From Norana najaformis (taxonomy: Eukaryota; Annelida; Clitellata; Crassiclitellata; Hormogastridae): DNA of 64,000 bases. Of the stretch, positions 1 through 23,702 are shown in pieces. The position numbers and the translations under genes were made by a program. Each line of letters starts with the position of its first letter. The first letter of the stretch is position 1. The stretch is taken from the NCBI GenBank assembly GCA_964023275.1, contig OZ029913.1, positions 39,310,757 through 39,374,756 of the forward strand, in the 5' to 3' direction. The notes under the pieces are model-generated. The model made no database searches and was not told where the DNA came from. It saw only the letters and a list, made by a program, of their open reading frames with translations.

Positions 1-281
1 AAAGGCATTGAAACTAGCATATGTGTGTGTGTCTGTATCATTATATATATATAAGTAACATTATGTATATATATATAATATATATATATGATACATGCAC
101 ACATAGGCTAGCTGGAGTGAAGTAAATGAGGAAAGTGCGTCCCAGTGAGGATGCAATTCTGAACCAGCAAAGGGAGGGACCTTGCCTCCTCTTCTCACGA
201 ATGGTTCCCTGTTAACTGCGTTTTGATTGACCGCAGCCTTCGGATGACAAGAAGCCACTCGATCGTGACGTCATTATGCAG
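1..281. other. Intronic sequence upstream of the first visible HPS1 exon
   Basis: No exon is visible here. Positions 40-90 carry a TA-rich run. The stretch ends in a splice acceptor (TTATGCAG) at 281. The exon(s) encoding the N-terminus of HPS1 must lie to the left of the window, because the first visible exon already corresponds to residues roughly 50-60 of the human protein and has no suitable start. Confidence 0.6.
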
Positions 282-305
282 ATCTTCTCACCGTTCATGA
301 CGTCA
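266..305. promoter_or_regulatory. Two perfect TGACGTCA palindromes around an HPS1 acceptor
   Basis: TGACGTCA occurs at 266-273 and 298-305, 32 bp apart. The first is in the intron and the second within the coding exon. This is the consensus CREB/ATF site. More half sites (TGACGT, ATGACGTT) lie at about 635-680. They could mark an internal promoter or enhancer, but the second site is also ordinary coding sequence (Met-Thr-Ser), so chance is possible. Confidence 0.2.
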
Positions 306-3300
306 CAGCGTTTCCTAAACGGCGTTCTCACGACTGCCTACCATTCGATACAGACGGAAAACGGACACTTGTTCGTTTTCATGCAGGTTGTAGTTGTGTC
401 GTTGTTATCATCGGCGTTGTCAACATCATGATTATCGTCTAATGTTGTCTTCGTCTCCGTTGTAAATATTGTTGTCGCATCACAATCATTGTTGTCGTCA
501 TCATCCTCGTTATTGCTATCATTATTATCATCTTTAGTATTGTTTATTTACTGTAATAATTTTCGTAGTACCAACACGTTTTTGGTCGGTCATAGGCACT
601 ATAATGCAACGCTTCAGAGTGGCACACCACAGACGATGATGACGTGAATTGACGTGCTTGTGGAATTCATGACGTTACGAATATTAAAAAGTCATTAATG
701 TTAATTCAAATTAATATTAATATTCATGATGTAGCCATGTAGCTCTATTCTGAATAAAGGTGTGATTTTAGCAAAAGAAATTATGTTGATAAGAAAGCGT
801 TTTTTACTTATCAAGTGGAACGAACAGATCTACATCGCAATTAGCAGTGATGAGACCGAAACGGAAATGTTCCTGACAAGAAAACTGTCCGTGCTTAACC
901 GAATCATTCGATTCCTTCTCGGTCCACTGCTCGATGAGTAAGCCCTATATAAATGTACATACTGTTAGATGTGCATTCAAACATTCAGTGTGCATAAAAT
1001 ACATTCAGCGCCTCTGAATAAGTTGGTCCCCATGGCGTGGCTTTTGTTGGGCGCTGTAGGAATCTCGGGACTACGATTACGAATCACAACGAACACATGA
1101 GCGGTTATAATAAGGCGCTATATAAATGTCTACAGGCCTATCTGTAGGCCTACACGCAAACATGCAGTTTAATATTTTTAGTGCTTAATAATACGTAGTG
1201 CTTAATAATACATACACATATGAACCTATTAAATGTTAAGGTATACATGGTTTTATATAGCGACCGTATGGCCTCAACCCTGCTCATTTTGTAATGAATT
1301 TCTTAGGGGAGATCTTTCACCGCTGCAGCGTTTGAATGGGTGCCACCCCATTTAAGTTACCCGTGCTAGCCCGAGATTCGAATCTCAAGTCACAATCGGC
1401 ATACGAGCCGGCATCCTCACGCACAGAGGTACCTTGACGTACGCTTTAACCAATGTAGCTACCTGGCCAGTTACGAGGGTTCTTAAAATTTCTGCGTTGT
1501 TGAGGCAAATGGAAGATGCACGACGTAGCTGGACAGTTTAAGTGGCTTTGGAAAATCGTTGGACTTTCAGGTTGAAACCGGAAAGTCTGGTCAGGCGCTC
1601 AGAGCTTTGGACCTTCACTGGTCAGTTGCTGTCCACCTGGTGTCGACTTCGCGATTCGGAAGAAGCGTTTCTTGTCGAGGTAGGTCATTTGGGGCTAGTA
1701 TTGACTGACTGACCGATTGGATTGAATGATTGACTAATGATAATAATGATGATGATGACTGATGATAATGATAATTAATTTACGTTATATTGCATTTTAT
1801 GATGAGGATGGTGATGGTTATGGCGATGATAGATTATGATTGATGCCTTGTGAGTTACAACAGTTGTTGTGAAGTAGCATCTAGATTAGATTAGAGTAGG
1901 TCAGAGTAGATTAAACGATGATGATGTTGTTGATGATTTTGACAATGACGATGATTATAATTTGTAACTATACTTACTATAACCTGTGCTCTTTGCATAT
2001 ATTTCTTTCCTGATAATTTTCCAGCTGCTGAAGGATGCTGCTATTCATATCTATGTGCTATGACAGAGGACATTAAGGCGCATTAGGAGCTGCATTACTA
2101 TGAGGTTGGGTAAGGTACTGAGTAATGATAGTTTGGCAGAGATCAGTCGTTGGTCGCCAGAACTAGTCATCGATATCCGACACCAGCAAGATAAGGACCT
2201 ACCCGAAGGCAGCGAGGGTAGAGCCGAGAAGTCCGACGATCAGCCAAAAGATAAGGCGCGATTTCAAAGGGCGCCGACATCGGTAATTGATGGAGTTGGA
2301 CGATCACACGACGAGGGGATGGAATCAAGCGCAGGGAAGCATACCAGCAGACCTGGTATAGAGGCAGATAGCAGGACAGAGTCCATGATAACACCAGTGC
2401 AACAACCTTAGTCGTAGTGAGTAGAGTTGTTGCTGGGGATTACTAATAAGGGTGACAAGTAGTGCAAATGAATTTACATAGGGATGAGCAGAAGTAGCCC
2501 AGGGAGGAATGGTTGTTGTACACGTCATAGCCCAGTGCTAGGAGGGCCCACCCTCGCAATGGGCCGGGAAGACAACGGCCGGAAGATCCGCCCTAAGCAA
2601 CTGATATTTCCTAAAAAGGAGATTTTAAGGGATAATGGGCAGAAATGCGTAAGCCAAGGCTCTTCCAAATTAGCAGACAGGCTAAGGATAGAAAATTATA
2701 TAAGCGTCGAGGAAGGTAATTTGCGCAGTCTTGTCAGAGCTAAGCTTTCTGAGTGAGGTTCGGATAAGACCCGACAGAATACGGACATTGACGACGGTGG
2801 ACACACTTTGTTCCTTTCATTGTGAGTATTCTGTTTTTGATATTAAATCTCGCAGCAAGCAGTGCTCTATCCTTTCTTATTAGTTCCCCCGGCTAGACCA
2901 TAGTACCATACTTGGCACAGTTACCATACCTGCCTCGTTTGCCATATCTGCATGACGAATTTTGTTTTGACTGGGCCAAATCACCAGTAATTATACCATA
3001 CCTGAATAAGCTGATCCCCATGACTTAAACTTTTTGGGTGCCATGCAAATTCGGAGATTATGATTACGATTGTCTGTTCCTTTCAAAGGCTTCGGAAAGA
3101 CTGCACATCAATCCGGAACTGAACGGCAAATGTGTCGGATTCTTAGAATGGGCGTTTAATGCGATCAAGTCGAAGGAAGAAGGAGCAGTTCATTCACTGC
3201 TTCTCATCAATAACAAAATCCTCTCGTTGTTTTCTGAGTAAGAATTTTATTATTGTGTAACTCTGACCAGCGTAAGATAACCGTGTATGTAATTAAGATG

Positions 3301-3530
3301 TTTTTAATTAAGTCAAATAGTAGTACGCTGTAATTGTGATGTTTTTAAGTTATGCACCTATGTGCGTAACTGTGACCGTCTTAAAGGCATACTATCAAGC
3401 AGACGGGCAGATAATGAGTTGTTTGCGGGTGGCGGATTGTAGGCTAGGGAGGTGAAGGACTTGGAAGATTGACCAGAGATATGCGGAAAGAGGATGAGAG
3501 AGAGAGATAGAGTGAGAGAGAGATAGAGTG

Positions 3531-3577
<47 letters not shown>

Positions 3578-6500
3578 TAGATAGATACAGACAGATAGAC
3601 AGACAGAGACAGACAGAGAGAGAGGCTCTGGATGTAGAAGGTGTACAGTCAACTTTGGAAGGGTCTCCGTTGGTTGTGTTTCACATGTATGCGAGAACCA
3701 ACCAGTCGAAGCCCATCATGTGACTTTTCCAGTTCCATGTATCTGAGCATCATTTGCTTGAGGATGAACTTGAAGTTATTATGAACTTAAAAGCCGCCTA
3801 ATTAGGCGCACAAGCCCTGGGCTTTTGGTAAGTACTTGGACGATGCTATATTTAGTATCTAGATATATACGTACAAAACCTAAAGTCCAAAACCCCAAAC
3901 ACCATCATGTTAATCTTGTTGTCCAATCACTTCACTGACTTAAAATACCTGAACGAATAGATTCCAAAGTTCTATCTCTTACTTACAACACAATTCAGTC
4001 CTCTCAAGCCTCCTATCTTCCTACCTATTACGAATATGAATGTTATGCTCCAATGCGTTTAACCATGAAATTCTGAAATTAATTAGTGCACAACCGTGAG
4101 CATCTTAAGGTAACGCCATGCGTAGTGCAAAACATCCTGTAAATTGGTTATAAGATCTCTTGTTTTTCAGTGCACGTGCGCCGGCAGTTGATGCTTCGGA
4201 CCTGATGATGATAATCATTTTAGTCCAGAGTCTCTTCCCCAGCTCTTCATCGAAAGAATCTACCCGTCCTTCTCCACCGTCAAGGACGTCGCAGTGTAGT
4301 ATTCATCCGGAACAGGTTCTTCGAGAGAAGAGTCCAGTGGACCAAACACAGCCTGATCTGGTCTCTGAGGGTCCTATCTTCAAGACCATTTCTGATGAAG
4401 GTGAGGTCGTTGGAAATGATAGTGACATGTTCTCTTCCGTGGACGAATCGTCTTTGGGTTTGGAGAAACACCTTCCGCCATCGGAGAAGCGAATAGTGTT
4501 CCTCCGACGTGGTTCCACCTACAACGTTCCGCATCTGTTGCACTGTGTTCCAGTGACAGTGGACATCACTCTTGTCTTTGTCTGTCAGGTAATGTAATCG
4601 AATCTAATGCAGCATAATGTAATATAACCTAATCTGACCTGACCTAATCTAATTGTAAATGTAATCGCAAACTTATATGGCGCCAATTAAAGAGAAATTC
4701 TTCAGAGACGCTCCTGACTTGATAACATAAAGCCACAATCGAATAGAATGGTTTTCAAGCGCTTGTGGAAAAGAGCAAAGAAAGGCCAAGAAGCTGATGT
4801 TGCAGGTAGTAATGCAGATTTTCCCCCTTGATACTGGATATATGCCCAAACCAATGCAGCTTTTTTCCTAAAGATGCGCAGACAACTGCGAAACTTCATT
4901 GATGGGCTGTGGAAGTTCTGATTGGTGGGACAACCAGGTCACCTTGTGCAGCAGAGCTAAGAAATCTGTGGCCAGGGATGGAAGAGACTGGGACGCATAG
5001 GTCCCTAAGATAAGATGGAGCACAGTCTGAAAGACGATAATGACGCATTCATGAGCATTAATATCTTAAATTGAAATGCGTTTTCACATAGGTAACCCGT
5101 GCAGTTCCTCCAACTTGACCCTGGATATATGCCCAAACCTATATGTATATGTAGCACCTAACAGCTCAGCCGCAGGCATCCTTAGATGTCTGAAACATTT
5201 TCTGTGGTAGGGAGATAGTCAGTCTCTACAGCTCGGTCACTGACATATGCCTGAATGTCATCAGCGTACAGATGAGCCGCAACCCCCAAAGAAGAAAGGA
5301 CTACCGGTAGTTTAAATCAGTGGTGTAGAGGATATAGAGTAGGGGCCTTAGGATGGAACTCTGTGGAAGACCTAAGTGAGACCATGGACCAGGCAGACCG
5401 TGTGGAACCAACAGTCACTGCCTCAGTGTGCCCAGAGAGGAATGAAAGCAACCACAACAGAGGGCGACCCACGAACCGAACGACCTTTCAAGGCCCTCCA
5501 AAACAATACACTGGCCAACAGTGTCGAAGGCTACACTAATAACAAGGGCGAGGGCAGTTACCAAAGGAACTGCCCCTAAGATGTTCACAATCTAATCTTG
5601 TCTGTCTTGTCTCATCTCACTCATCTCATCTTATCCTATTCTGTACTATCCCAGATTTGATTGGATTGAACTAAATGAGATTAGATTAGATTAGATGAGA
5701 TTATGTTAGTGGTCAGGAGGCCTTTATGTGAGTTTGGGATGTGGGATCATGCCTGGAGTGACCGCCTGATCCACCATTTATCTAATATAATTTGTTCTAA
5801 TCTAATTTAATTCGGTGTTATTTAATTCAGCCAATCTAATTTGTCAAATCTGAAGACATTAATTAGCAATGTGCAAAGCATCAGCTGATGATCACTTCAA
5901 AGTGGAGAAGTCCATTTATTTATTTATTTATTATTTATTTATTTATTTATTGAAAGCACTTATAACGCATACAAGGTCAGTAATTCTGAATCTGAGGTGC
6001 GGAAACACAACAGGTTTAAGTTTTATCGTTTCTCATCATTCTCCGACTCAGTCTCTTGGTTATGTTTATGCACAGGTCTCCCGTGTGGAAGATTCCATGG
6101 CCTTGATCAGACTCCTCGAAGTCCTCCACCGTGTCCTGCACGTTTCCTGGAGAGACAGCATCGGTTCAGCTACAGTGGCTGTCAAAGTTCTCGATTCATC
6201 CATTAAAGCAATTCTGAATATAGCCCAGCATTATGGCGTTAGTAGGCTTTAGTTATATTTAACTCTATATTTAACTCTATGTTTAATTCTTTGTTTAAAT
6301 AAAGGTGGTAGCATTTAACTCTATATTTAACTCTATATTTAAGTGAAGGTGGTAACATAATTGTTATATGTTGTGTGAAAAAAATGTTCATGTCTGGTGT
6401 TTGTTTGGATGCAATTGCAAGAACTTAGAGATGCTGAGTGGTACAGTCAAGACGTTGGCAGATAGATGGAAAGCGGTCAACACTTCATCATTTCTTGTCC

Positions 6501-6591
6501 ACTTGGAAGAGGCGGAAACCAGTGGATCTCTCGATCAAAGGTAATCGTTACTTTACAGTCTGATCGTGTTCTTTGAAACTCCACCTGCTTG

Positions 6592-6625
<34 letters not shown>

Positions 6626-9600
6626 TGAGAGAGAGAGATATCTGTGTGTCTGTCAGTCTTTCCGTCTGTCCGGTTAACTATCTGGTTGGTTGCTGTCTGA
6701 TTGTATCTGTCTGGCTGTGTCTGGCTGACTCTGTCTGACTGTCAGTCTTTTCTCTATGCTTGTCCTGTCTGAAGAGTTATTATTACAATAATATATTATT
6801 CTTATTCTTCTTCTTCATCATCTTCTTCTTCATCTTCTTCCTTCTCCTCTTCCTCCCCTCCTCTTCCTCTTCCTCCCCTCCTCCTCCCCTCCTCCTCTGC
6901 CTTCTCCTCCTGTTCCTTCTCATCATCATCATCGTCGTCATCATCCTGCTCCTCCTCCTCCTCCTCCTTCTCCTCTTCTCCTCCTCCTCCTCCTCCTCCT
7001 CATCATCATGACTACACACACACACACGCACCCACACACCTACACACACAAACACGCACACTGTTAGTTTGTGGTTTTTTTGGCCAGGGTTCGATTTGAT
7101 GTGCAACAGATGTACAGTCAGGCTCTGAGTCTGTTCTATCATTTGTTTTTCGTGCCTCGTACGCTGACCACTGAGGAGGAAGGAAGCCAGGCCGAGCAGC
7201 TCCGGGAGATCCAGCGTCGCCTAAGGGCATCTCTCAGCGACTACGTCAAATTTCTTCATGCCAAGTCGCTCAACAACCTGACTCTAACATCATATCCTTC
7301 CACGTTTAGCTGCTTGATCGATTGAATGGGCGACTGTTTATCTGTTTGACTGACTGACTGACTGACTGACTGATTGACTGACTGACTGACTGACTGAGTG
7401 ACTGAATGACTGACGGACTGACTGTTTGATTGACCCCTACTGTTCTACATGACCGATTGTTTGATTGACTGACTGATTTACTGATTAAGTGAGCAATTCT
7501 TTTACATGGCCAGAGTTGTTTTTGCTTACAAAGAAATTACTGGGTGTATAATGAAATGTAATGTATTGTGTCATCATGTGATCTAGTTTCAGTGTCACCC
7601 TGTTGTTTCATCCTTGACACCTTTTTCTACGCTGTATCCAGGGATGATTCATTTTCTTTATGTTGATCGAACAGCCAATCAGATGACGGGAACTTCGTTT
7701 GCAGCTGGCAGCGACCAGGAATCTAACAAAGTTCAACGATTGTTGATTAAGAAAAATGTAGGATTAAGTTGCTTTTTAAAAATACGTGCTTTAAATTGCT
7801 TTAAAAAAGAAATCTGTTTGCCTTCAGTTGTTTTGTAAAGAAAAATGTGGCCTTTAATTTTGTTTTTGTAAGAAAAATTTAGGAAAATTTGTTTTTTAAG
7901 AAAAAAAATGGGTTTATTTATCTTTTAAAAAGAAAAATGCAGGCTTTAATTTGTTTTTTAAAAGAAAAGCGTGGACTTAAATTTAGTTTTATAAGCACTG
8001 ACAATCTTTTCGAGTTGTCAATGATCTGGCTTCAAACTGTTGACTCGCCCGTTTCGTAGCTTAGCATTAATTCGAGTAAAGATGTTATAGGGCTAAATTT
8101 TAATCAGACCAACAGTTCAATAACACTAGTACTTGAATCTTCACAGTTACTAAATGCGCGAATCTATCCACGACATTTGTGATTCAAACTTTCAACTTAG
8201 CACATGCCAGACCTCTGCTACAAATCTTCATGCTCTCTGCAACAAAATTTTTGCAATCCCTAAACAATGTATTTGAGTCCGCTTTTATAAGTCCTTTCCG
8301 TCAAAACAGCAGACCAGTACAAACTGGTTTAAACCGGCCTTCCGATATTGTGTAATTGTCGGTTTTAAAAACTCGCTGACTCATGCCAGCGCCCATGTGA
8401 TAAAATACGCGTCAGCAATAATTACTGCTGATGTCAACCCGCCTTCCCGGAGGCATTTCCAGCCAATCACGCCACCCTCCACCGCGCGTCTGAAGCGAGG
8501 CAACCGTAAGCACGTGATCAGTGAGTGCAAAAACAAACCAATAACCCGATGACTCTTGGAAATTTCGTGTGCAAATGTGCACTCAAAACTTGCTGACTAA
8601 GCAACACAATATTACATTCAAAACAATAAAAATGTTTGCTATACTGTGTTTTTATAAATGTGTGCTTTGATTTGCTTTTTTGAAGAAAACATGGACTTTA
8701 TTTTGATTTCTTAAAAGAAAAATGTGGACTTCAATTTGTTTTGTAAAAGAAAATATGGACTTTATTTTCAGTTTTAATAGAGGTGGGCATTGATTAAAAA
8801 TTGTAATCGAAATAATCACGTGATTAAAGTTCCTCATCCTTTGATTAATTATATAAAACATGGAAGAATTAAATTTGATCAGAAATTTGTAATGTGCTGT
8901 ACAGCTGATGCGCATTTGTTGAGTATATGGCCACTTACTATTCCTTTACCCCAAGAATACTTAAAGTGCACATTCAAAATATTAATTGCAATAAAAAATT
9001 GTGTTTAAAAGTTTAATTGCATTCATAAAGATAGTAACACATCAAATACCCAGTTAGTATTTGTACGAAAAACGTAAAGTTTAAGGTAGCTTTTAAAAAG
9101 AAAACTGTTGACTTTAATTTGTTTTTTAAATGAAATATGTGGCCTTCAGTTCGTTTTAAAATATGAGCTCTAATTTATTTTAAATAAAATTGTGGGTTTT
9201 ATTTGTTTTGTTTTAAGAAACTACATTACATTACAGTATGTTTGTTAGATGTGGATGTTGATCGAACTGATGCACCAGAATTTGCTTCAGGGCTGCACAT
9301 CCACCCTGATCAGAAGGAGTGATTACTACTACATATACAGTCTTTGGTTTGAAGATGCCACGGTGGGTATCGATGAGCCATGTTGCCATGACTCCTGCAT
9401 GTTTGCAATGATATTACTATGGCAGTTGTAAGACTTTATCTTCCTTACCTTGCCTTTCTTATCTTACCTTACCTTTCATTACCTTAGTACTTGAAAACCA
9501 TTCTGTTTAATCAGTTTTGTGTAATCAGGTTGGAAATGCCTATGAAGAGTTTCTCTAGAGGTGTCACTCCAAAAACTAGTGATTACAATTACCTTACCTT

Positions 9601-10927
9601 CTTTGCCTTACCTTCCTTAGCTTATCTGATTTAACCTTATTATCTTATGCTACCATCCATCCTTCCTTGCCTCCACTTCAGTCTGGGTTCAGAAAATATC
9701 ATTCGACTGAATCACTTATGACTTGCCTTTTTTGCTGACGTATTTGGGACTATTGATTGCGGGTGGGTCCAATTTAAGATCCTCACTCTTATGCGCAGGT
9801 ATGTTGCTGACTCTGCTCCCCTTTACCTCATTGACTTCTGCACTTTGGTCTCCTCGTTGCCGGGCCGTAGCACCCTCCGCTCGGACACTCAGGATCTCCT
9901 GTTTGTCCCTTGCATGCGAACCGCTGCGGCCCAGTCCAAAAGCTTTGCCTACTTTGGTCCCGCTTGCTGGAATCGTCTCTCTCCAGAATTTCGACTTGAG
10001 CTCCTTTCTCTCCCCTCTCAATGTTCCGCAGGCGCCTGAAGACTGTACTGTTTAACAGTGATTCTACTTGCTCGGGTCGGGAGCGCCTCTGTTGAGTTTA
10101 TCCTCTAAGAGGCGCTTTATAAATCTAAAATAACAATTACAATTACCTTATCCTCTTTAACTTACCTTAATGTCCATGCATTAGTTTTTCTTCCTTACCT
10201 CACCTTGCCTTCCAAAACTTACCTTTACCTTTTTTTTTACCTCATCTTAACTTAACTTACTTTACCTACCTTACCACGCCTTGCCTTCAACTTTTGAAAC
10301 ATGGCTAAGGCTGTTGTAACAAAGGTTTGTTTGTGATTTTAGGGCAAGCCGCTAACAGTCAAAGTTCCGTTCAAAGCAACTCAAGGGTTTCTGCTTCCAG
10401 GAATCATTTTTCAAAATTTCTACAAGTTTGTACATATTTTCAGTTTTATCATTATTGTTTACATTCAAACAAACAAGGCTGAGACATTGTACATGCTTTC
10501 TTGATTGGTAGTTGGCACTTACTTAACTTAGTAACCTACCTACTTGCCTACCTTACAGTGTTGCTACCTACCTACCTAGCTACCTAATTTTCTACCTGAC
10601 TAGCTATTTACAAACTAACTTGCCTGCGTGCTTACTTAAACCCATCTTCTTGCTTACCTATACTTGCCTAATTATTTACCTACCTACTTATTTACCTACT
10701 TGCTTACTTACTTACCTACTTACCTATTCTTTTTGTGATGCTGTTGTTGTAGAAAGCTTGTGAGCCGCAGTTTTCCAAAGACCACACATCCGATCAACTG
10801 TTACGAACTGATAACTGTGCATACAGCTAGCATGCCAAAGTCACTGATGCATGACCAGCGTCAGAAACTGATAGGCTGCCTTGTCCAGGAATCCGCCGTT
10901 TCCAACTCTCCTCTTCCACTATTTTGA
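282..10927 (+). CDS. HPS1: HPS1, BLOC-3 subunit (5' end outside window), 12 exons
   Basis: HPS1 pairs with HPS4 to form BLOC-3, the guanine-nucleotide exchange factor for Rab32/Rab38 on lysosome-related organelles. Exons: 282-386, 816-937, 1571-1679, 3089-3237, 4171-4588, 6076-6237, 6422-6540, 7088-7291, 7631-7757, 9249-9362, 10343-10425 and 10753-10927. All junction phases agree and the sum is 1887 nt: 628 residues plus TGA. Vertebrate HPS1 is about 700 residues, so only about 50-70 N-terminal residues are missing. Matches to remembered human HPS1 run throughout: TENGHLFVF; a Leu-rich stretch before RLRDSEEAF; AVHSLLLINNKILSLF; DLMMIIILVQSLFPS; FLHAKS..NLTLTS followed by YPGMIHFLYVDRT; YSLWFED; and the C-terminal NCYELITVH block. 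These fit the longin-type folds of the HPS1/HPS4 family, without transmembrane segments. Every intron is GT-AG except 7292-7630 (AT-AC). The least certain junction is the exon-6 donor at 6238 (GGC/GTTAGT). Confidence 0.93.
1003..1088 (+). repeat. Dispersed 3'-tail repeat ending in GATTACGATTACG-like tail
   Basis: A stretch of about 85 bp contains CTGAATAAGTTGGTCCCC, then GGGCGCTGTAGGAATCTCGG and ACTACGATTACGAA. Recognisable copies occur at 2995-3072 (+), 13138-13325 (-), 16425-16475 (+) and 61975-62140 (-). A GCGCT, AAATT, GATTACGATTACG end fits the 3' terminus of a LINE or LINE-mobilised SINE. A related short tail (GGCGCTATATAAATG) lies at 1112-1130. Confidence 0.55.
1265..1475 (-). repeat. 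tRNA-derived SINE (family B), minus strand
   Basis: Read on the minus strand the segment starts with a tRNA-like head carrying an A-box-like TGGTTAAAGCG and a B-box AGATTCGAATCTC. It continues with CACCCATTCAAACG..., GAAAGATCTC and AATGAGCAGGGTTGAGG. The body (CCATTCAA.TGGGCAGCG, ..AATGAGCAGGGTCAAGGTCATAC) is repeated on the plus strand at 41285-41420. Lies in an HPS1 intron. Confidence 0.55.
1680..3088. other. HPS1 intron with unassigned open frames
   Basis: The first 300 bp are ATG/TGA microsatellite-like. Between 2100 and 2756 there are two adjoining plus-strand open frames (103 and 90 codons) rich in charged residues (Glu, Asp, Lys, Arg) that match nothing I recognise. No splice sites of matching phase flank them and HPS1 coding phase is complete without them. 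They are probably remnants of a mobile element. Another copy of the GATTACG tail repeat sits at 2995-3072, just upstream of the acceptor at 3088. Confidence 0.4.
3490..3630. repeat. GA/GATA/GACA microsatellite
   Basis: Alternating (GAGA)n, (GATA)n and (GACA)n runs in an HPS1 intron. The rest of this intron (3640-4170) shows no coding or repeat structure that I can recognise. Confidence 0.85.
4690..5390 (-). mobile_element. L2/CR1-like LINE fragment, minus strand
   Basis: Read on the minus strand, the frame near 5245-5300 gives AAHLYADDIQAYV, the YADD catalytic motif of reverse transcriptase in the form typical of L2/CR1-type LINEs. Further along the same strand (about 4700-4800) the frame gives FHKRLKTILFDCGF, resembling the usual C-terminal K-x-LKT-x-LF ending of these ORFs. 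Frames are interrupted by stops and shifts, so this is a dead fragment. It lies in the HPS1 intron 4589-6075; the rest of that intron is GATTA-rich sequence and a TTAT run (5915-5955). Confidence 0.6.
6596..7056. repeat. Microsatellite-rich HPS1 intron (GT, GA, TCC/TCT, CA)
   Basis: (GT)n and (GA)n at 6596-6645; a long polypyrimidine tract of TCT, TCC and CATCAT units at 6785-7010; (CA)n at 7015-7056. The tract ends just before the acceptor at 7087 and produces long spurious Ser/Leu- and Glu/Arg-rich open frames on both strands. Confidence 0.9.
7292..7630 (+). other. HPS1: U12-type AT-AC intron in HPS1
   Basis: The intron starts with ATATCCTTCC, an exact match to the U12 AT-AC donor consensus ATATCCTT. 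It contains TCCTTGAC at 7611-7618, matching the U12 branch-site consensus TCCTTRAC. It ends in ...TTTTTCTAC at 7630, 13 nt after the presumed branch A. With these borders, TC at the end of exon 8 joins G from exon 9 to give Ser, and the frame continues into LYPGMIHFLYVDR. The only nearby GT donor (7304) would break the frame. The intron also holds a GACT microsatellite (about 7345-7440). From memory, human HPS1 also has a rare AT-AC intron. Confidence 0.9.
7840..9225. repeat. Interrupted AT-rich minisatellite in HPS1 intron
   Basis: A degenerate unit of about 35-40 bp, roughly AAGAAAAATGTGGACTTT followed by AATTTGTTTTTTA, is repeated at 7840-7995, again at 8655-8775 and again at 9075-9220. 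Two stretches without the unit separate the blocks: about 7996-8645 and about 8776-9070. The second begins AGAGGTGGGCATTGATTAAA, which resembles the start of some hAT elements. The arrangement looks like one array split by two insertions. Confidence 0.55.
9680..10140 (+). mobile_element. L2-like LINE fragment (ORF2 C-terminus and 3' tail)
   Basis: The plus strand reads QSGFRKYHSTESL near 9685-9715, then after a deletion a frame from 9769 containing LRSDTQDLL and FAYFGPACWNRLSPEF, the usual end of L2/CR1-type ORF2 proteins. It ends in GAGGCGCTTTATAAATCTAA followed by an ACAATTACAATTACC tail. Lies within the HPS1 intron 9363-10342; internal deletions make it dead. Confidence 0.65.
10500..10735. 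repeat. CTAC/CTTAC simple repeat before the last HPS1 exon
   Basis: Loose repeats of TTACC, CTACC and CTTACTTACC fill most of intron 10426-10752, close to the acceptor at 10752. Similar TTACC-rich DNA occurs at 9430-9640 and 10140-10280. Confidence 0.7.
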
Positions 10928-14743: not shown

Positions 14744-15934
14744 ATGTCAGCAAAACATCTGCGGCACAGTGACATTTTGCGGAAGAGTGTACCATTTCTT
14801 ATGGAAAACATCTATGATGTTCATGAGATTCTGGACTATCTCCTGGCATCAGAAGTCATCTCATGGGATGAGAAAGACGATATCTCATGCCAGGCAACAC
14901 GTCGTAGGCGCATTGAGATGCTGCTCAACTTTCTGAGAGATAAAGATCGGCACACGTTTGACGTATTCTGTGAGGCATTGACGTATAGCAGAAATGGCTT
15001 TGTCTGTGAGGAGTTGGAACGCGTTGCAGCACAGTTTGAGGAAGAAGAGACGTCGTCAGAAATAGTCTCTGCTCAAGCAGCGGACACTAGGGAAGGTAGT
15101 TTTATTAATTTCAATGACAAAATAACTGACTCTACAGTGGATGCCCGTTGAGCAAAGAGTCACGTTTAGAATGTATCATAATAGTTCGCAAAGTGTGACA
15201 TATATATCAGCTTACCTATCTCTTAGGATAGTGGTAGATGGGATTAGATTAAAGATCAGATTAGATCTAAATAGTTGCTTTTGAGGCTGTTCTTTAATAG
15301 TGTGCATTATAAATACAGTAACTGTTTAATAATAATAAGATTCAGTTTGAATACGTAATTTGCACTTGTCTCCATTCGATCATCAGTCAAAGACAGTCTT
15401 GATGCAAGAATGTAAGAATGCTAAGGCATGGCGCTAAAATGGTCAACTTTATAAATGGCACTATGTAACTAAATTAATTTAAATTTCAAGCTCGTTTTTC
15501 CTTGAATCTGATGGTTTTCATTTACAGGAGACAACGGGTTTACAAATCTGAGCCAGGAGTGGAGACTTCGTCCACCGACGACGGAGGCAATTTCCTTACT
15601 GTCACGCCGACTCTCGCCTTACTGCTTCTTCCATGTCGGACAGCTGTTGGGATTTACCAAGAGCCGCCTGGAGCAGTACCAGGCCTCTGATCCGTACTCT
15701 GTTCCAACTCAATTCCTCAAAATGCTTTGCGACTGGCGTGCAAAGGACAGTGACAAGGCCACCCTTGACAGACTGGTCCTTGTCCTTCAAAGTTGCGGCA
15801 TAGAAGATGCAGATTATAGGGACATACTAGAACAGCACCCTGCATCTGCTAGTTGTCCCTCTCAGATATTTAGTAGCAGTAGTGTGTCATCAACATTGGT
15901 ATCATCTACACAGCAAATGCCTCAGTGGGTCTAG
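14744..15934 (+). CDS. CARD-Death domain adaptor, CRADD/RAIDD-like
   Basis: Two coding exons, 14744-15095 and 15528-15934, encode 252 residues. An acceptor at 14730 places ATG 14744 (AAG ATG) as the first start in the exon. The donor AAG/GTAGTT and acceptor TTTACAG join in phase 1: G plus GA gives Gly. Residues about 8-95 form a CARD (LRKSVPFLMENI, then EILDYLLASEVIS, then RRRRIEMLLNFLRDKDRHTFDVFCEAL), with the pattern of the RAIDD CARD. Residues about 138-218 form a Death domain (LSRRLSPYCFFHVGQLLGF, then FLKMLCDWRAKDSDKATLDRLVLVL). This order is that of CRADD/RAIDD (199 residues in human), which bridges PIDD1 and caspase-2 in the PIDDosome. The protein has an extra Ser/Gln-rich tail of about 30 residues and an unusually short linker. 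An invertebrate CARD-Death protein of separate origin cannot be excluded, so no symbol is given. Confidence 0.88.
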
Positions 15935-17820: not shown

Positions 17821-18069
17821 CTTTATAACCCTTGCTGTGTTGTTAGCAAGTCATCTTCTAATTTGTAAATGACTATGTATGTGCTGTAGTTCAATTGCAG
17901 CAAAATGTTTAAAAAAATTCCGGTATTGAATTTTGTCCCTTTAATGACTGTTGTGTAACACTTGATTTTTAATTACAATCCTAAGAGAATGAAATCATTT
18001 TATTATTTTTATTTTGTTCAAGGTTTCTTAAGTTGCATCGCTGTAGGTCTGTTGCTAGATTACACTAGA

Positions 18070-19370
18070 CTTCTTTCAGCCAACAAATCTTGAGGAGGTT
18101 CACAGACTCATCTTCTCCTCACCTAACAAATGTTCTCTACTTGATGCCACTCCTACACCTCGTCTGAAAGAGTACTTTGATATCCTAGGTCCTACCATTA
18201 CATCAATTATGAGTTTCTCACTGCTTGAGGGATCCTTCCCATCTGCTTTTGCTCATGCTGTAGTTGATCCTCTGTTGAAGAAAACCCTCTGTTGAAGAAT
18301 CCTGACCATGGCAACATGTCTAATTGCAGACCCATCTCAACTTTTAATTTTTTTATCTAAAGTTCTTGAATGGGTTGTTACGAATCATGTGGAAACTCAC
18401 CTATCTTCTAATTTATTAATATCCCCATTGATTCTGCATACCGTAAGTTACTCGGCAGAATCTGCTCTTACTGTTCTTAATAACATCATGTGTTCCATGA
18501 ATAAAAGTAGGGTGACAGCACTTGTTCTTCTTGATTTGTCTGCTGCTGTCTATACTGTGGCCCTTTCTCTTCTTCTGTATCATCTTCAGGACTGGTTTGG
18601 TGTTTTGAGTCCTGCCCTGCTTCGGTTTGCTACTTGCATGTATCTTATCCCATGCATTCATATGGTATATTTAAATGGACATTATGCAAGGTGAATGCTT
18701 TGTTGACATGTGGTGTTCCTCAGCGTTCAGTGCTTGATCCTCTTGTTTGCATTATGGACAACGCTAGGTACATTACTTAGCAATCATTCATTTGCATATA
18801 TTTATATGCAAATGATACTCTACTCATATTTACATTTCATTTGACAGTTTGTCTTGTCACTCATCTGTGCAGCTGTTGTCCAATACCTTTGAGGAAGTGC
18901 AGTCTTGGATGGTGGCGAATAAACTCGTCCTTAACCCATCAAAAACTGAATTTCTACTACTGGGCATTCCACAGCAACTTAAGAAGTTTGAACGGTTTAA
19001 ATTCTTAAAACTGGGTGACTTGCTTGTTGAGTTGGCTGATGCTGCTCATAACTTGGACATTGCTTTTGATTCGACAATGTCTCTCACCGACTGTATGTAT
19101 GGTATTTGTAAGATGAGCATTCATGACATACACAGAATCAGGCATTATGTCCCCACGTCTTCAAGGATATCTCTGGCAAATGCATTGATCTCCAACTGCC
19201 TTGACTACTGTAACTCGCTTCTTGTCAGTGTAACAAAGTCAAAATTTCGGAAATTCCAAAGCCATAACTAATATGTCAAAATATTCAAAATATGATCATA
19301 AAACCCCTATGTCTTTGCACTGGCTTCCTATTCAGCAAAAGATTTTGTTTCAAATTAGGCTTTGAGTTGG
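18070..19370 (+). mobile_element. L2-like LINE, broken ORF2
   Basis: Plus-strand frames in order: about 18070-18300 (upstream RT region); 18308-18694 containing LSKVLEWVVTNHVETHLSSN and ALVLLDLSAA (RT fingers/palm); 18849-19271 containing VQSWMVANKLVLNPSKTEFL and NLDIAFDSTMSLTD (RT thumb region), with LDYCNSLL near the end. These are standard L2/CR1 ORF2 landmarks. Several frameshifts and a damaged catalytic region (around 18800-18830) make it inactive. Confidence 0.75.
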
Positions 19371-19604
19371 CCACATTCCCCAGACTTATCATTACTCAAT
19401 CTTTCTCAGTAGCTGGACCTAAATTTTGATTGGAACTCTCTCTCTCTCTGAGTCCCTTCGTTTTTAGTTGCTTGTGTAATTTCATTTTCAGCTTCATCAG
19501 ACTTGCATTTTTCCACCATAGCCTGCCTTGTTGTCTTTGTGGACTGACCTAGATATTGACATGATTGGGGTTTGGTTTTGATGTGCCATTGGTTGATGCG
19601 TAGT

Positions 19605-20290: not shown

Positions 20291-23200
20291 TCTAGGTGGA
20301 GGATCGCAAAATTGTCTCCGCAGTTTTAGGATCGGTGTTGCACAGCTTCCCAGTTTTCATGACCTTTCTACTGTACAAGTTTGAGACCTAATGTGCCAGA
20401 CCGGCCACAAGGCTGGAATGTAGGATTTATTCACATTGAATAGAAGGCACAGAGTCGGATCCTAAGATTGCTTTACAGTGTTGCCTCTCGCGTAAGGAAG
20501 GGGTCCAAACCGAAAGTTCCTTGGAGACAGCAGACACTGGGCAGGGATGGTATATGGAACGGCCATTTTACGTTGAGAATAGAAAGGAAATGATGTGGGT
20601 GGCTCCGGGTGTAGCTCTGGCTTAGAGTCACCCTAGTCCCGCGAAGTCATGCACAGACGGCAACGGGGACACGAACCCCAATCATTCCTGCAATTTAGCA
20701 GGATTACCCCTTTCCTCTGAATCAGCACTTGGTGTTGCGAACATTTGCTCTTAAATTGACCTACCAATTATATTTTAAGGTATACTAGTCTTGCCTATGA
20801 AATTTCAGTTGCTCTTCGATTACTGAAAAAAGTAACTCTAATGGAAGATAGTATTGTAAGTAAGTAAGTACCTGTAGTCAAAAGTCATAAACCGCTGGAG
20901 AAACCCGGTCGATATCAGAGGTGGGAACCAGTGGAGGGAAAGACCAGTGGACAGAAGCGAAATATGTGAAGAAAATGTGTCTTCAATGGGAGATAGACAG
21001 AACCAGTTGGGGGAAGTGTCCCTCTGCAAACTACACCCTGCTTATCTGTCTCGTTTTCAATTTTTGTTCACTTGTTTGTATTCATTGTGGTTTTCTTTTG
21101 TTTCAGTTTCTCAAAAGCATTGACCTTTGCACTGGTGACTCTGCTGTTGGCAGGTGACGGTGCTGAAGCACACGTTCATGAAAGGTCAACCGATGGTCAA
21201 GGATTTCATGACAGCAAGGTTGTCAGAGACCCCGAGTGAGTTACACTGATCTTGAATCACACTACTTGTCCATTTGTCCCTGGTTAGATCTGGTCTTTTT
21301 TGCCAGGGTTGGGCCACGTGCACTCCTGAGTAGGTATCTTGAAGAGATGCTCTATAAATTTGCAAAATGAATGAATGAACAAGTGAGGGAATGAGTGAAC
21401 GAGTGAGAGAGTGGACAAATGAGTGGATGGATAGGTGGGTATGTGGTTGTATGGGTGGCTGTACGTATGCATGGATGGGTGGATGGATGGATGGATGAAT
21501 GAGTGTATGAAAACACACAAGAATCATACAACAATGCAACTACCGTCAGGTGAAAGAAACTCTTGCCAGAGTTGCGCTAGTGACAAGAGCTTTTGTGAGG
21601 CACCTAAAAGGTGCTATGTAAATGCTCAGATATATACAACAATGCATGTTATAAGGAGGCTTCAGTTTTCTATTCCGGGTAGTAGTAACAATGGGGATGA
21701 TGAACATCATGTTTATACTCTGCTTGCAGACACATCAATGAACATCTACAGGGCCAAGCAGCAATCAACGTGAGTCAAATGGGTGCAGAAGAATTGGAGT
21801 TCTACTACTTCAAGTAAGCCTCTCAACATAGTAAAATTCCCAGTAAAGTAATACATGCATAATTCTGAGATTTACATGCATGCAGTATATATATATATAT
21901 GTGTGTGTATGTGTGTGTGTGTACCTGGACAGAGGGTGTACTTTGATATCGATGAAGATGATTGGCTTTTCTGTCACCTGAATAACCAAATCAGTGTTTC
22001 ACAGTGCAATAATTATAAGACTGTGTGAGCTAATTGTTTTGTTACATTTGATTACATTGCATAAAGATTGTTCATTTTTGAAAGGCTGATGTCATGTTTG
22101 TGCTTCAGCCAAAAGATCTAAAAGATACAGAATATACGTTTAGAGGGTTAATATGGCTGATGATGGCAGGTGACTCATTGACGAGCAAGAACCACTATAG
22201 AAGAATAGTTTAAAGGCAGGGAATAAGTCAGCACTCCTATGTACAAGAGCCATCTATAGGGAGCCATACTAATGTTTTTATTATGTTACTGTTGCATTCT
22301 GTATTTCTGCAGGTAATAAGCAATCGCTGCAGTGACAGCGTACAAATATTTGGTTATGTTCATGTAAGATATTGTTATATTAGGCTACTATTACATTTGT
22401 TACAGAACTATTTTGTTATAGCAATAATACATTTTGTTACACTACTGTCCCATACTTTGCTTTACATTTGTGTAGCAATCAACTAAGCACTGCTCCTAGA
22501 GTCTCTTCTTGGGAGGCTAAAGATGCCAAACATCGCTTACTTATGTTACGTTTGTGCAGATTACACGACACGGACAACAATACGAAGCTGGATGGTCTCG
22601 AGATTTACAAAGCGATGGTTCACATGTTGCCGTTCGATGAAATTGAAAATATCGTAAATAAGAAAGTCGATGCGAGAGGAAAGACGCCCGAACAGATAAA
22701 GAAAGAGCGAAAAGAACAAGAAATCAAATATTACACCGGTAACTCCTGTAATTGTTGTCATGGCAACATACCTTAATTTTGTGTAATGTATGATTTATGC
22801 AAAACAACAGGAAGTCAAATACATCTTTAAACGGTGAAAGACTGATATTTTGTTGAAATTTAAAATATGCTCATGATTAATAAATGGTCGCCTATAAAGG
22901 ACACCCGCAAAGGGTTAAAGGAGGTCATCCAAATGCGGGCAAACGTTGACAAGAGAAGAGGGGCTTTGCTGAATGCAGACGCCCGCATTTAAATTTGGTA
23001 CAGTTTCTGGATGAGGTAGTGTCAAAATACCCCACACCGTGGCACCTCGCAAGATCGACAGGATAGCATAATTTAGGCCTTGGTACTCAGAATGCTGACG
23101 TTCGCAAAGGGGTGGGGTAGGTAATATCGACTGCGGGGAAGAAATCTGGAGAAGGGGAGACATCCTTTGTGGACGACCTCTAAGCAGTGCAAGATTTAGC

Positions 23201-23654
23201 TTTAGGAGTGGGGGCGGTTCACCCGCCGCGCCCCTATTGGTTATATGCTGGCGCCCTCAGACCAGACCCGTGCATGTTGGACTGCCAGAATGTGGTGCCC
23301 CTCTGGAACTGTTCTTGCCCCGCGTGCAAGCAGTCCTGGAGCCGCAACTGCCGCTAACCTGTTTTACGATCTCACGATGGAAACATTCAATGTGCTACCA
23401 GGGCAGTTAGATATCCAGGCTGACATAACATGATAACGTCAGCAGTGACTGTGGCTGAGGTCTACAATGCTGATGTTCCAAGATAATATCTTTGCATGAA
23501 TTTGATGTTTTTTCCAGATATTGTTGATAATGTGATGAAGGCTGATGACATCGATGATGATGGATATCTCACTTATCCCGAGTATATCATCGCCAGACGA
23601 AGGGAGGAAGCCTACGAAGAAACAGACCAGCCTTCGAAGCGAAACACCCACTAG
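20137..23654 (+). CDS. MCFD2: MCFD2-like EF-hand cargo-receptor subunit
   Basis: MCFD2 is a luminal Ca-binding partner of LMAN1/ERGIC-53 in ER-to-Golgi cargo export. Exons: 20137-20186 (tentative), 21107-21235, 21730-21813, 22560-22738 and 23518-23654. Phases agree throughout, for 192 residues (human about 146). Exon 2 encodes a hydrophobic signal segment (FSKALTFALVTLLLAG) ending in Ala-Glu-Ala. Exon 3 gives EHINEHLQG then ELEFYYFK, close to remembered MCFD2 (EHIMEHLEG, ELQLHYFK). Exon 4 carries EF-hand 1 (DTDNNTKLDGLE). Exon 5 carries EF-hand 2 (DIDDDGYLTYPE) and a charged tail ending Asn-Thr-His-stop. A Lys/Glu-rich spacer between the EF hands is longer and more charged than expected. Exon 1 supplies an ATG (AACATG) in correct phase, but its 17 residues make an odd N-region for a signal peptide, so the true start may differ. 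AATAAA at 23703 and 23747 are likely polyadenylation signals. Confidence 0.85.
20600..20740 (-). repeat. Possible tRNA-derived SINE head, minus strand
   Basis: The minus strand contains a B-box-like GGGGTTCGTGTCCCC and an upstream CCTGC..GCAGG stem that could be an anticodon arm. No intact tRNA cloverleaf can be built, so this looks like a SINE head. Confidence 0.35.
21335..21515. repeat. Repeat tail with GAAT/GGAT microsatellite in MCFD2-like intron
   Basis: GAGATGCTCTATAAATTTGC at about 21343 is followed by (GAAT)n, (GAGT)n and (GGAT)n runs to 21510. The ATAAAT-plus-simple-repeat structure is that of a LINE/SINE 3' end. The reverse strand gives spurious Ile/His/Ser-rich frames. Confidence 0.6.
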
Positions 23655-23702
23655 AGCAGAACAGCACATAGTTAAATAACTCAGATTGTTTTATCCAAGG
23701 TT

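What the first reader, a model, noticed from the sequence alone, without database searches (positions are those of the whole stretch)
7292..7630. AT-AC U12 intron retained in an invertebrate HPS1 gene
Donor ATATCCTT, branch site TCCTTGAC and acceptor TAC are all present, the branch A is 13 nt from the acceptor, and only these borders keep the frame (Ser-Leu-Tyr-Pro-Gly). From memory human HPS1 also has a rare AT-AC intron. If the site is the same, this minor-class intron has kept its AT-AC termini since the bilaterian ancestor, and this organism must have a working U12 spliceosome.
Basis: partly seen in the sequence, partly recalled or inferred. Interest (0 to 1): 0.8.

Follow-up and report, generated by a model that had tools for sequence, protein, structure and literature searches.

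The report
Ancient AT-AC intron in HPS1 gene
A lophotrochozoan-like invertebrate's version of the human albinism gene HPS1 carries a rare minor-class intron at the same codon where human HPS1 has an intron, which fits an already known pattern of very old minor introns and hints at why one human albinism variant breaks splicing.

Summary
Confirmed. Window 7292-7630 (+) is an AT-AC intron with U12-type donor (ATATCCTT), branch site (TCCTTGAC, A 7617) and AC end, in phase 2 of a Ser codon of an HPS1 gene (12 exons read; the 5' coding end was not found). The protein matches human HPS1 (8zwc_A, E 3.9e-58). The Ser aligns with human Ser533, c.1597-1599. A clinical paper's variant c.1599-16T>G puts the start of human exon 17 at c.1599: same codon, same phase. 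The genome holds U11, U12, U4atac and U6atac and matches to PDCD7, CCDC84 and Ubiquitin_4 (33, 65, 66). Hox sequences suggest a lophotrochozoan, perhaps an annelid, so the intron most simply dates to the bilaterian ancestor. One claim is too strong: 26 border pairs keep the frame. Deep conservation of minor introns and of the AT-AC subtype is already in print: a new member of a known kind. By-product: human -16T corresponds in position to the last T of the U12 branch site here, a possible cause of that albinism variant. No RNA data and no human intron letters were available.

The parts
237..386 (+). HPS1 exon (first one found; 5' coding part not found)
   Evidence: the human match starts at human residue 38
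816..937 (+). HPS1 exon
1571..1679 (+). HPS1 exon
3089..3237 (+). HPS1 exon
4171..4588 (+). HPS1 exon
6076..6237 (+). HPS1 exon
   Evidence: by reading frame and GT-AG borders; lies between the two stretches that match human
6422..6540 (+). HPS1 exon
   Evidence: by reading frame and GT-AG borders; lies between the two stretches that match human
7088..7291 (+). HPS1 exon upstream of the minor intron (ends in phase 2, TC of Ser)
7292..7630 (+). AT-AC U12-type intron, at the position of human HPS1 intron 16
   Evidence: human boundary deduced from PMC11355033
7292..7299 (+). U12-type 5' splice site ATATCCTT
   Evidence: UCCUU can pair with AAGGG of U11 and AAGGA of U6atac of the same genome
7611..7618 (+). 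U12 branch site TCCTTGAC, branch A at 7617
   Evidence: UCCUUG can pair with UAAGGA of the genome's own U12 RNA
7629..7630 (+). AC acceptor, 13 nt from branch A
7631..7757 (+). HPS1 exon downstream of the minor intron (equivalent of human exon 17; its 3' border also matches human, phase 0 before c.1744)
9249..9362 (+). HPS1 exon
10343..10425 (+). HPS1 exon
10753..10927 (+). last HPS1 exon with TGA stop 10925-10927

Best explanation
7292-7630 is a genuine U12-dependent AT-AC intron of a functional HPS1 gene, inherited at the same codon and phase from the common ancestor with human HPS1. U11 and then U6atac recognise AUAUCCUU. U12 pairs with UCCUUG-(A)-C, bulging branch A 7617; the minor spliceosome then joins TC to G to make the conserved Ser codon. 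Shown: sequence, frame, gene identity, codon and phase match to human, and the presence of the four minor snRNAs in the same genome. Inferred: that splicing occurs as drawn, that the human intron at this very site is the AT-AC one (title seen, intron number recalled), and descent from the bilaterian ancestor.
For: Motifs and frame. HPS1 homology: 8zwc_A E 3.9e-58, Pfam longin domains 1-3. Of the 11 introns between the 12 exons that I placed, 10 have GT-AG ends and this one AT-AC. The Ser codon 7290-7291 + 7631 aligns with human Ser533, c.1597-1599, after an ungapped stretch; the next border (before V582, c.1744) also matches (36 of 102 columns identical). Human exon 17 starts at c.1599 and is 145 nt (408 minus 263 bp), so it ends at c.1743 (deduced from passages of PMC11355033). 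snRNAs: U12 121.5 bits, U4atac 79.3, U6atac 102.1 and 98.6 plus 3 weaker, U11 100.1, all over the cut-offs. GTCCTTATCAAGG of U4atac is the exact complement of CCTTGATAAGGAC of U6atac; the two strong U6atac copies have a TATA-like box and a T run, as read. Partial matches to PDCD7 (2), CCDC84 (3) and Ubiquitin_4 (1, with a stop in the matched stretch); that these mean U11-59K, CENATAC and SNRNP25 is recalled. One locus: all 12 matches of the joined protein in the genome lie here.
Against: No transcript data. Human has 3 extra codons one codon after the junction, which leaves slight doubt on the downstream side of the alignment. zf-SCNM1 gave no match (27-position model, and the tool says that this does not show absence). 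A leech, Helobdella, lost about 80% of its minor introns, mainly by conversion (PMC10639083), so retention is not automatic in annelids. An attempt to find a second conserved AT-AC intron as a control failed.
Confidence: 0.95

Rival explanations
1. The intron is spliced by the major spliceosome with other, GT-AG or GC-AG, borders, and the AT-AC signals are coincidental or relict.
For: 26 border pairs of five types keep the frame, among them 2 GT-AG and 4 GC-AG. Conversion of minor introns to major ones was the main way of loss in a leech.
Against: Both GT-AG pairs start at GTCAAATT (7245), by eye a poor donor, and remove 47 nt of coding sequence that aligns with human; the GC-AG donors (GCCAAGTC, GCTGCTTG, GCTTGATC) look poor too (judged by eye). 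Human uses the junction corresponding to 7291/7631.
Confidence: 0.03
2. An AT-AC intron gained or converted independently in this lineage at the same place.
For: Only two species could be compared, one by exon coordinates alone. One U2-to-U12 conversion is reported in Diptera, and the authors say that the one-way view of switching has to be revised in its light (PMC2831892 passages).
Against: Same codon and phase, neighbouring border also shared. No U12-type insertion was found in the eutherian and vertebrate analyses of PMC2831892 (passage), and switches from GT-AG to AT-AC had been widely regarded as not occurring (the direction is my recall).
Confidence: 0.02
3. HPS1 pseudogene in which splice signals are under no constraint.
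For: None found; the 5' coding exon was not found either, which a crude filter may explain.
Against: 643 codons over 12 exons with no stop before the terminal one, and no other locus matched in the genome.
Confidence: 0.01

Closest known systems
Mammalian HPS1 AT-AC intron (Feng et al. 1997 for mouse pale ear; human intron 16 by recall)
   Same: Same gene; intron at the same codon (Ser533 in human) and phase 2 as human intron 16; AT-AC class reported for the mouse gene (title only)
   Different: The exon after the junction is 127 nt here against 145 nt in human, 3 of the 6 missing codons close to the junction; the letters of the human and mouse introns were not seen
AT-AC U12-type introns conserved between human and Drosophila (PMC2831892)
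   Same: Deep conservation of position and subtype: of 16 fly U12-type introns with a human U12-type ortholog, 15 have the same terminal dinucleotides in mammals (passages)
   Different: The part of the fly table that I saw does not name HPS1; 'HPS' occurs 0 times in the main text
Minor introns shared by human, Saccoglossus kowalevskii and Aplysia californica (PMC10639083)
   Same: 102 minor introns shared by the three species in the aligned genes (passage), the same depth as claimed here

Membership tests
U12-type AT-AC intron | 5' splice site ATATCCTT | tested here: met
   7292-7299, 8 of 8 letters
U12-type AT-AC intron | Branch site TCCTTRAC about 10-20 nt from the acceptor | tested here: met
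   TCCTTGAC 7611-7618, A 7617 13 nt from 7630
U12-type AT-AC intron | AC 3' end | tested here: met
   7629-7630
U12-type AT-AC intron | Minor spliceosome in the organism | tested here: met
   U11, U12, U4atac, U6atac over Rfam cut-offs; 3 of 4 protein families tried matched (not 41)
U12-type AT-AC intron | Excision by the minor spliceosome at these borders | not testable with these tools
   no RNA data
HPS1 | Similarity to human HPS1 over most of its length | tested here: met
   8zwc_A E 3.9e-58, two stretches, query 4-318 and 446-629 of 643
HPS1 | Three FUZ/MON1/HPS1 longin domains | tested here: met
   PF19036, PF19037, PF19038, each above its cut-off
Ortholog of human HPS1 intron 16 | Same codon and phase | tested here: met
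   Ser533, c.1597-1599, split after base 2; human exon 17 starts at c.1599
Ortholog of human HPS1 intron 16 | Human intron has AT-AC termini at this site | not testable with these tools
   title of Feng et al. 1997 on the mouse gene in a reference list; intron number recalled

The most novel reading that the evidence does not exclude
The conserved U12 branch site explains a human disease variant: HPS1 c.1599-16T>G, which no software flagged but which skips exon 17 in a minigene, hits the last T of the UCCUU element that pairs with U12 snRNA. In the window the equivalent base (-16 from the exon) is 7615, exactly that T. The variant would then be a minor-spliceosome branch-site mutation, and splice predictors tuned to major introns would miss it for that reason.
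Probability: 0.75. Interest if true: 0.45.

Novelty: new member of a known kind. Interest (0 to 1): 0.3.

Why it matters
It adds a probable protostome data point for a very old minor intron in a disease gene and shows that the organism keeps all four minor snRNAs. It also gives a testable cause for an albinism variant in intron 16 of human HPS1 whose effect was shown by experiment without a stated mechanism in the passages read (PMC11355033).

Tried and rejected
Rfam on the window at gathering scores found 0 matches. The molluscan haemocyanin beta domain was not found in the genome (the tool warns that this does not show absence), so I had no mollusc marker. zf-SCNM1 not found (same warning). 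A second AT-AC intron was sought as a control in prohibitin 2 via Band_7: 19 matches, 12 loci given; a script for prohibitin motifs as I recall them gave one chance-like line (L038) and no prohibitin exon; dropped. The 5' coding exon was not found in the 9.9 kb upstream with a crude motif filter. The intron has no stable fold: 100 of 100 shuffles fold at least as well, z +2.82; much of it is a degenerate TGAC/TGAT repeat. A twintron was considered: no in-frame GT-AG alternative keeps the conserved residues.

Literature, all 10 searches: Hermansky-Pudlak + AT-AC, 4 papers, 3 opened for passages; HPS1 + U12 + AT-AC, 0; HPS1 + intron 16, 2, not opened; HPS1 + exon 16/17 + splice, 367 holding 3 of 4 terms, 1 used; HPS1 + c.1597 to c.1601, 27 holding 2 of 6 terms, 2 used, of which PMC4302577 concerned ITGA2B at that number; HPS1 + minor intron, 1, HPS1 only in a reference; HPS1 splice variants by number, 0 holding 3 of 6 terms; U12-type + AT-AC + animal groups, 612 holding 4 of 6 terms, 3 used; Hermansky-Pudlak + U12-type, 1, the former only in a reference about HPS3; '1599-16' + HPS1, 4, the other 3 than PMC11355033 look unrelated from the listing and were not opened. 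No paper was read whole; passages only.

Full report
What is there. The + strand from 237 to 10927 holds 12 exons of an HPS1 gene whose joined frame has 643 codons and one terminal stop (I placed the borders by eye, looking for open frame and splice signals). The protein matches human HPS1 in the PDB (8zwc_A, E 3.9e-58) over two stretches, query 4-318 and 446-629, and carries the three longin domains of FUZ, MON1 and HPS1 above Pfam cut-offs. The match starts at human residue 38, so the first coding exon is missing from the model; a crude look upstream failed. A search of the whole own genome (608 Mb, 17 contigs) with this protein gave 12 matches, all in this locus, so no second copy was seen.

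The intron. Of the 11 introns between these exons, 10 have GT-AG ends and one, 7292-7630, AT-AC. Its donor is ATATCCTT, its branch site TCCTTGAC (7611-7618, A at 7617), its end CTAC; the branch A is 13 nt from the last base. In simulations of the window's composition the strict combination occurred 8 times in 400 single 64-kb strands, the loose one in 32% of strands. The window also holds loose donor and branch-site pairs elsewhere on both strands, so it is the place in the gene that makes the case. None of the other 25 combines U12 signals at normal spacing with the conserved protein.

Comparison with human. The Ser codon at 7290-7291 + 7631 aligns with human Ser533, codon c.1597-1599, after an ungapped stretch. 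PMC11355033 (passages) describes NM_000195.5:c.1599-16T>G, skipping of exon 17, and minigene products of 408 bp with and 263 bp without exon 17. From this I deduce that human exon 17 starts at c.1599 and is 145 nt long, ending at c.1743. Both borders of that exon match the window: phase 2 in the same Ser codon, and phase 0 before V582. The window's exon is 18 nt shorter, 9 nt of this close to the junction. That mammalian HPS1 has an AT-AC intron I saw only as the title of Feng et al. 1997, on the mouse gene, in a reference list; that it is intron 16 I recall.

The machine. The own genome holds U12 (121.5 bits), U4atac (79.3), U11 (100.1) and U6atac (102.1 and 98.6, plus three weaker matches), all over the Rfam cut-offs. 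Their sequences fit the intron: UAAGGA of U12 can pair with UCCUUG of the branch site, AAGGA of U6atac and AAGGG of U11 with UCCUU of the donor. U4atac and U6atac share an exact 13-nt complement. The two strong U6atac copies have a TATA-like box upstream and a T run at the end (read); the three weak ones look like pseudogenes to me. Four protein families were tried: PDCD7 (2 partial matches), CCDC84 (3) and Ubiquitin_4 (1, with a stop in the matched stretch) were found, zf-SCNM1 was not, which the tool says does not show absence. That these stand for U11-59K, CENATAC and SNRNP25 I recall.

The organism. A search with a fly Ubx homeodomain gave 101 matches. Of the 16 loci fetched, five (L011-L014, L016) continue with a Ubd-A-like peptide and L017 with LQKLTGP, a Lox5 mark; both marks are recalled, and the review PMC5831810 holds neither 'Ubd-A' nor 'parapeptide'. 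That review says that in clitellate annelids the Hox cluster is broken into several regions with duplications, which fits the scattered copies here. I take the animal to be a lophotrochozoan, perhaps an annelid; no name was available and no tree was made.

How it works, and age. The simplest account is a minor intron excised by the U11/U12, U4atac/U6atac spliceosome and inherited from the bilaterian ancestor. This is expected rather than surprising. PMC10639083 counts 102 minor introns shared by human, the acorn worm Saccoglossus and the mollusc Aplysia in the aligned genes. PMC2831892 finds the same terminal dinucleotides in 15 of 16 fly-mammal orthologs; it also reports one U2-to-U12 conversion in Diptera, so convergence is not impossible. 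It is of mild interest that a leech has lost about 80% of its minor introns, mainly by conversion (PMC10639083), while this animal kept this one.

By-product. Counting back from the exon, position -16 in the window is 7615, the last T of TCCTT. If the human intron has the same spacing, c.1599-16T>G breaks the U12 pairing. That would explain why exon 17 is skipped although no software predicted it. Two details of that paper complicate the picture: the first RT-PCR on the patient's blood showed normal splicing, which the authors then trace to decay of the variant's transcript, and the wild-type minigene also skips exon 17 in part. The paper's main text holds 'U12' 0 times and 'branch' 0 times, and searches showed me no paper that says it; this is a search of one open-access library. 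The human intron letters are needed to decide.

Other results. The intron RNA folds less well than all 100 of its shuffles and consists in large part of a TGAC/TGAT repeat, so I see no sign of a structured element in it.

Noticed in passing
L011-L026 (G000 contigs C1, C3, C4, C6, C7): Many dispersed Hox-type homeodomains; five carry a Ubd-A-like peptide (QQIKELN and the like), one on C1 and four on C3, suggesting repeated duplication of Lox2/Lox4-type genes.
   Followed up: partly
L003-L007: Five U6atac matches: two near-identical copies with TATA-like box and T run, three diverged or truncated ones that look like pseudogenes.
   Followed up: partly
window about 14745-15098 (+): Open frame with a CARD domain (PF00619, E 6.6e-14), a caspase-recruitment protein downstream of HPS1.
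   Followed up: partly
window about 21100-23655 (+): Exons of a small EF-hand-like protein resembling MCFD2 by eye; a joined piece gave no Pfam match at 0.001.
   Followed up: partly
window about 18060-19400 (+): Decayed reverse-transcriptase-like reading (LINE relic), seen by eye only.
   Followed up: no
window about 7346-7440: Degenerate TGAC/TGAT tetranucleotide repeat fills much of the minor intron without touching its signals.
   Followed up: yes
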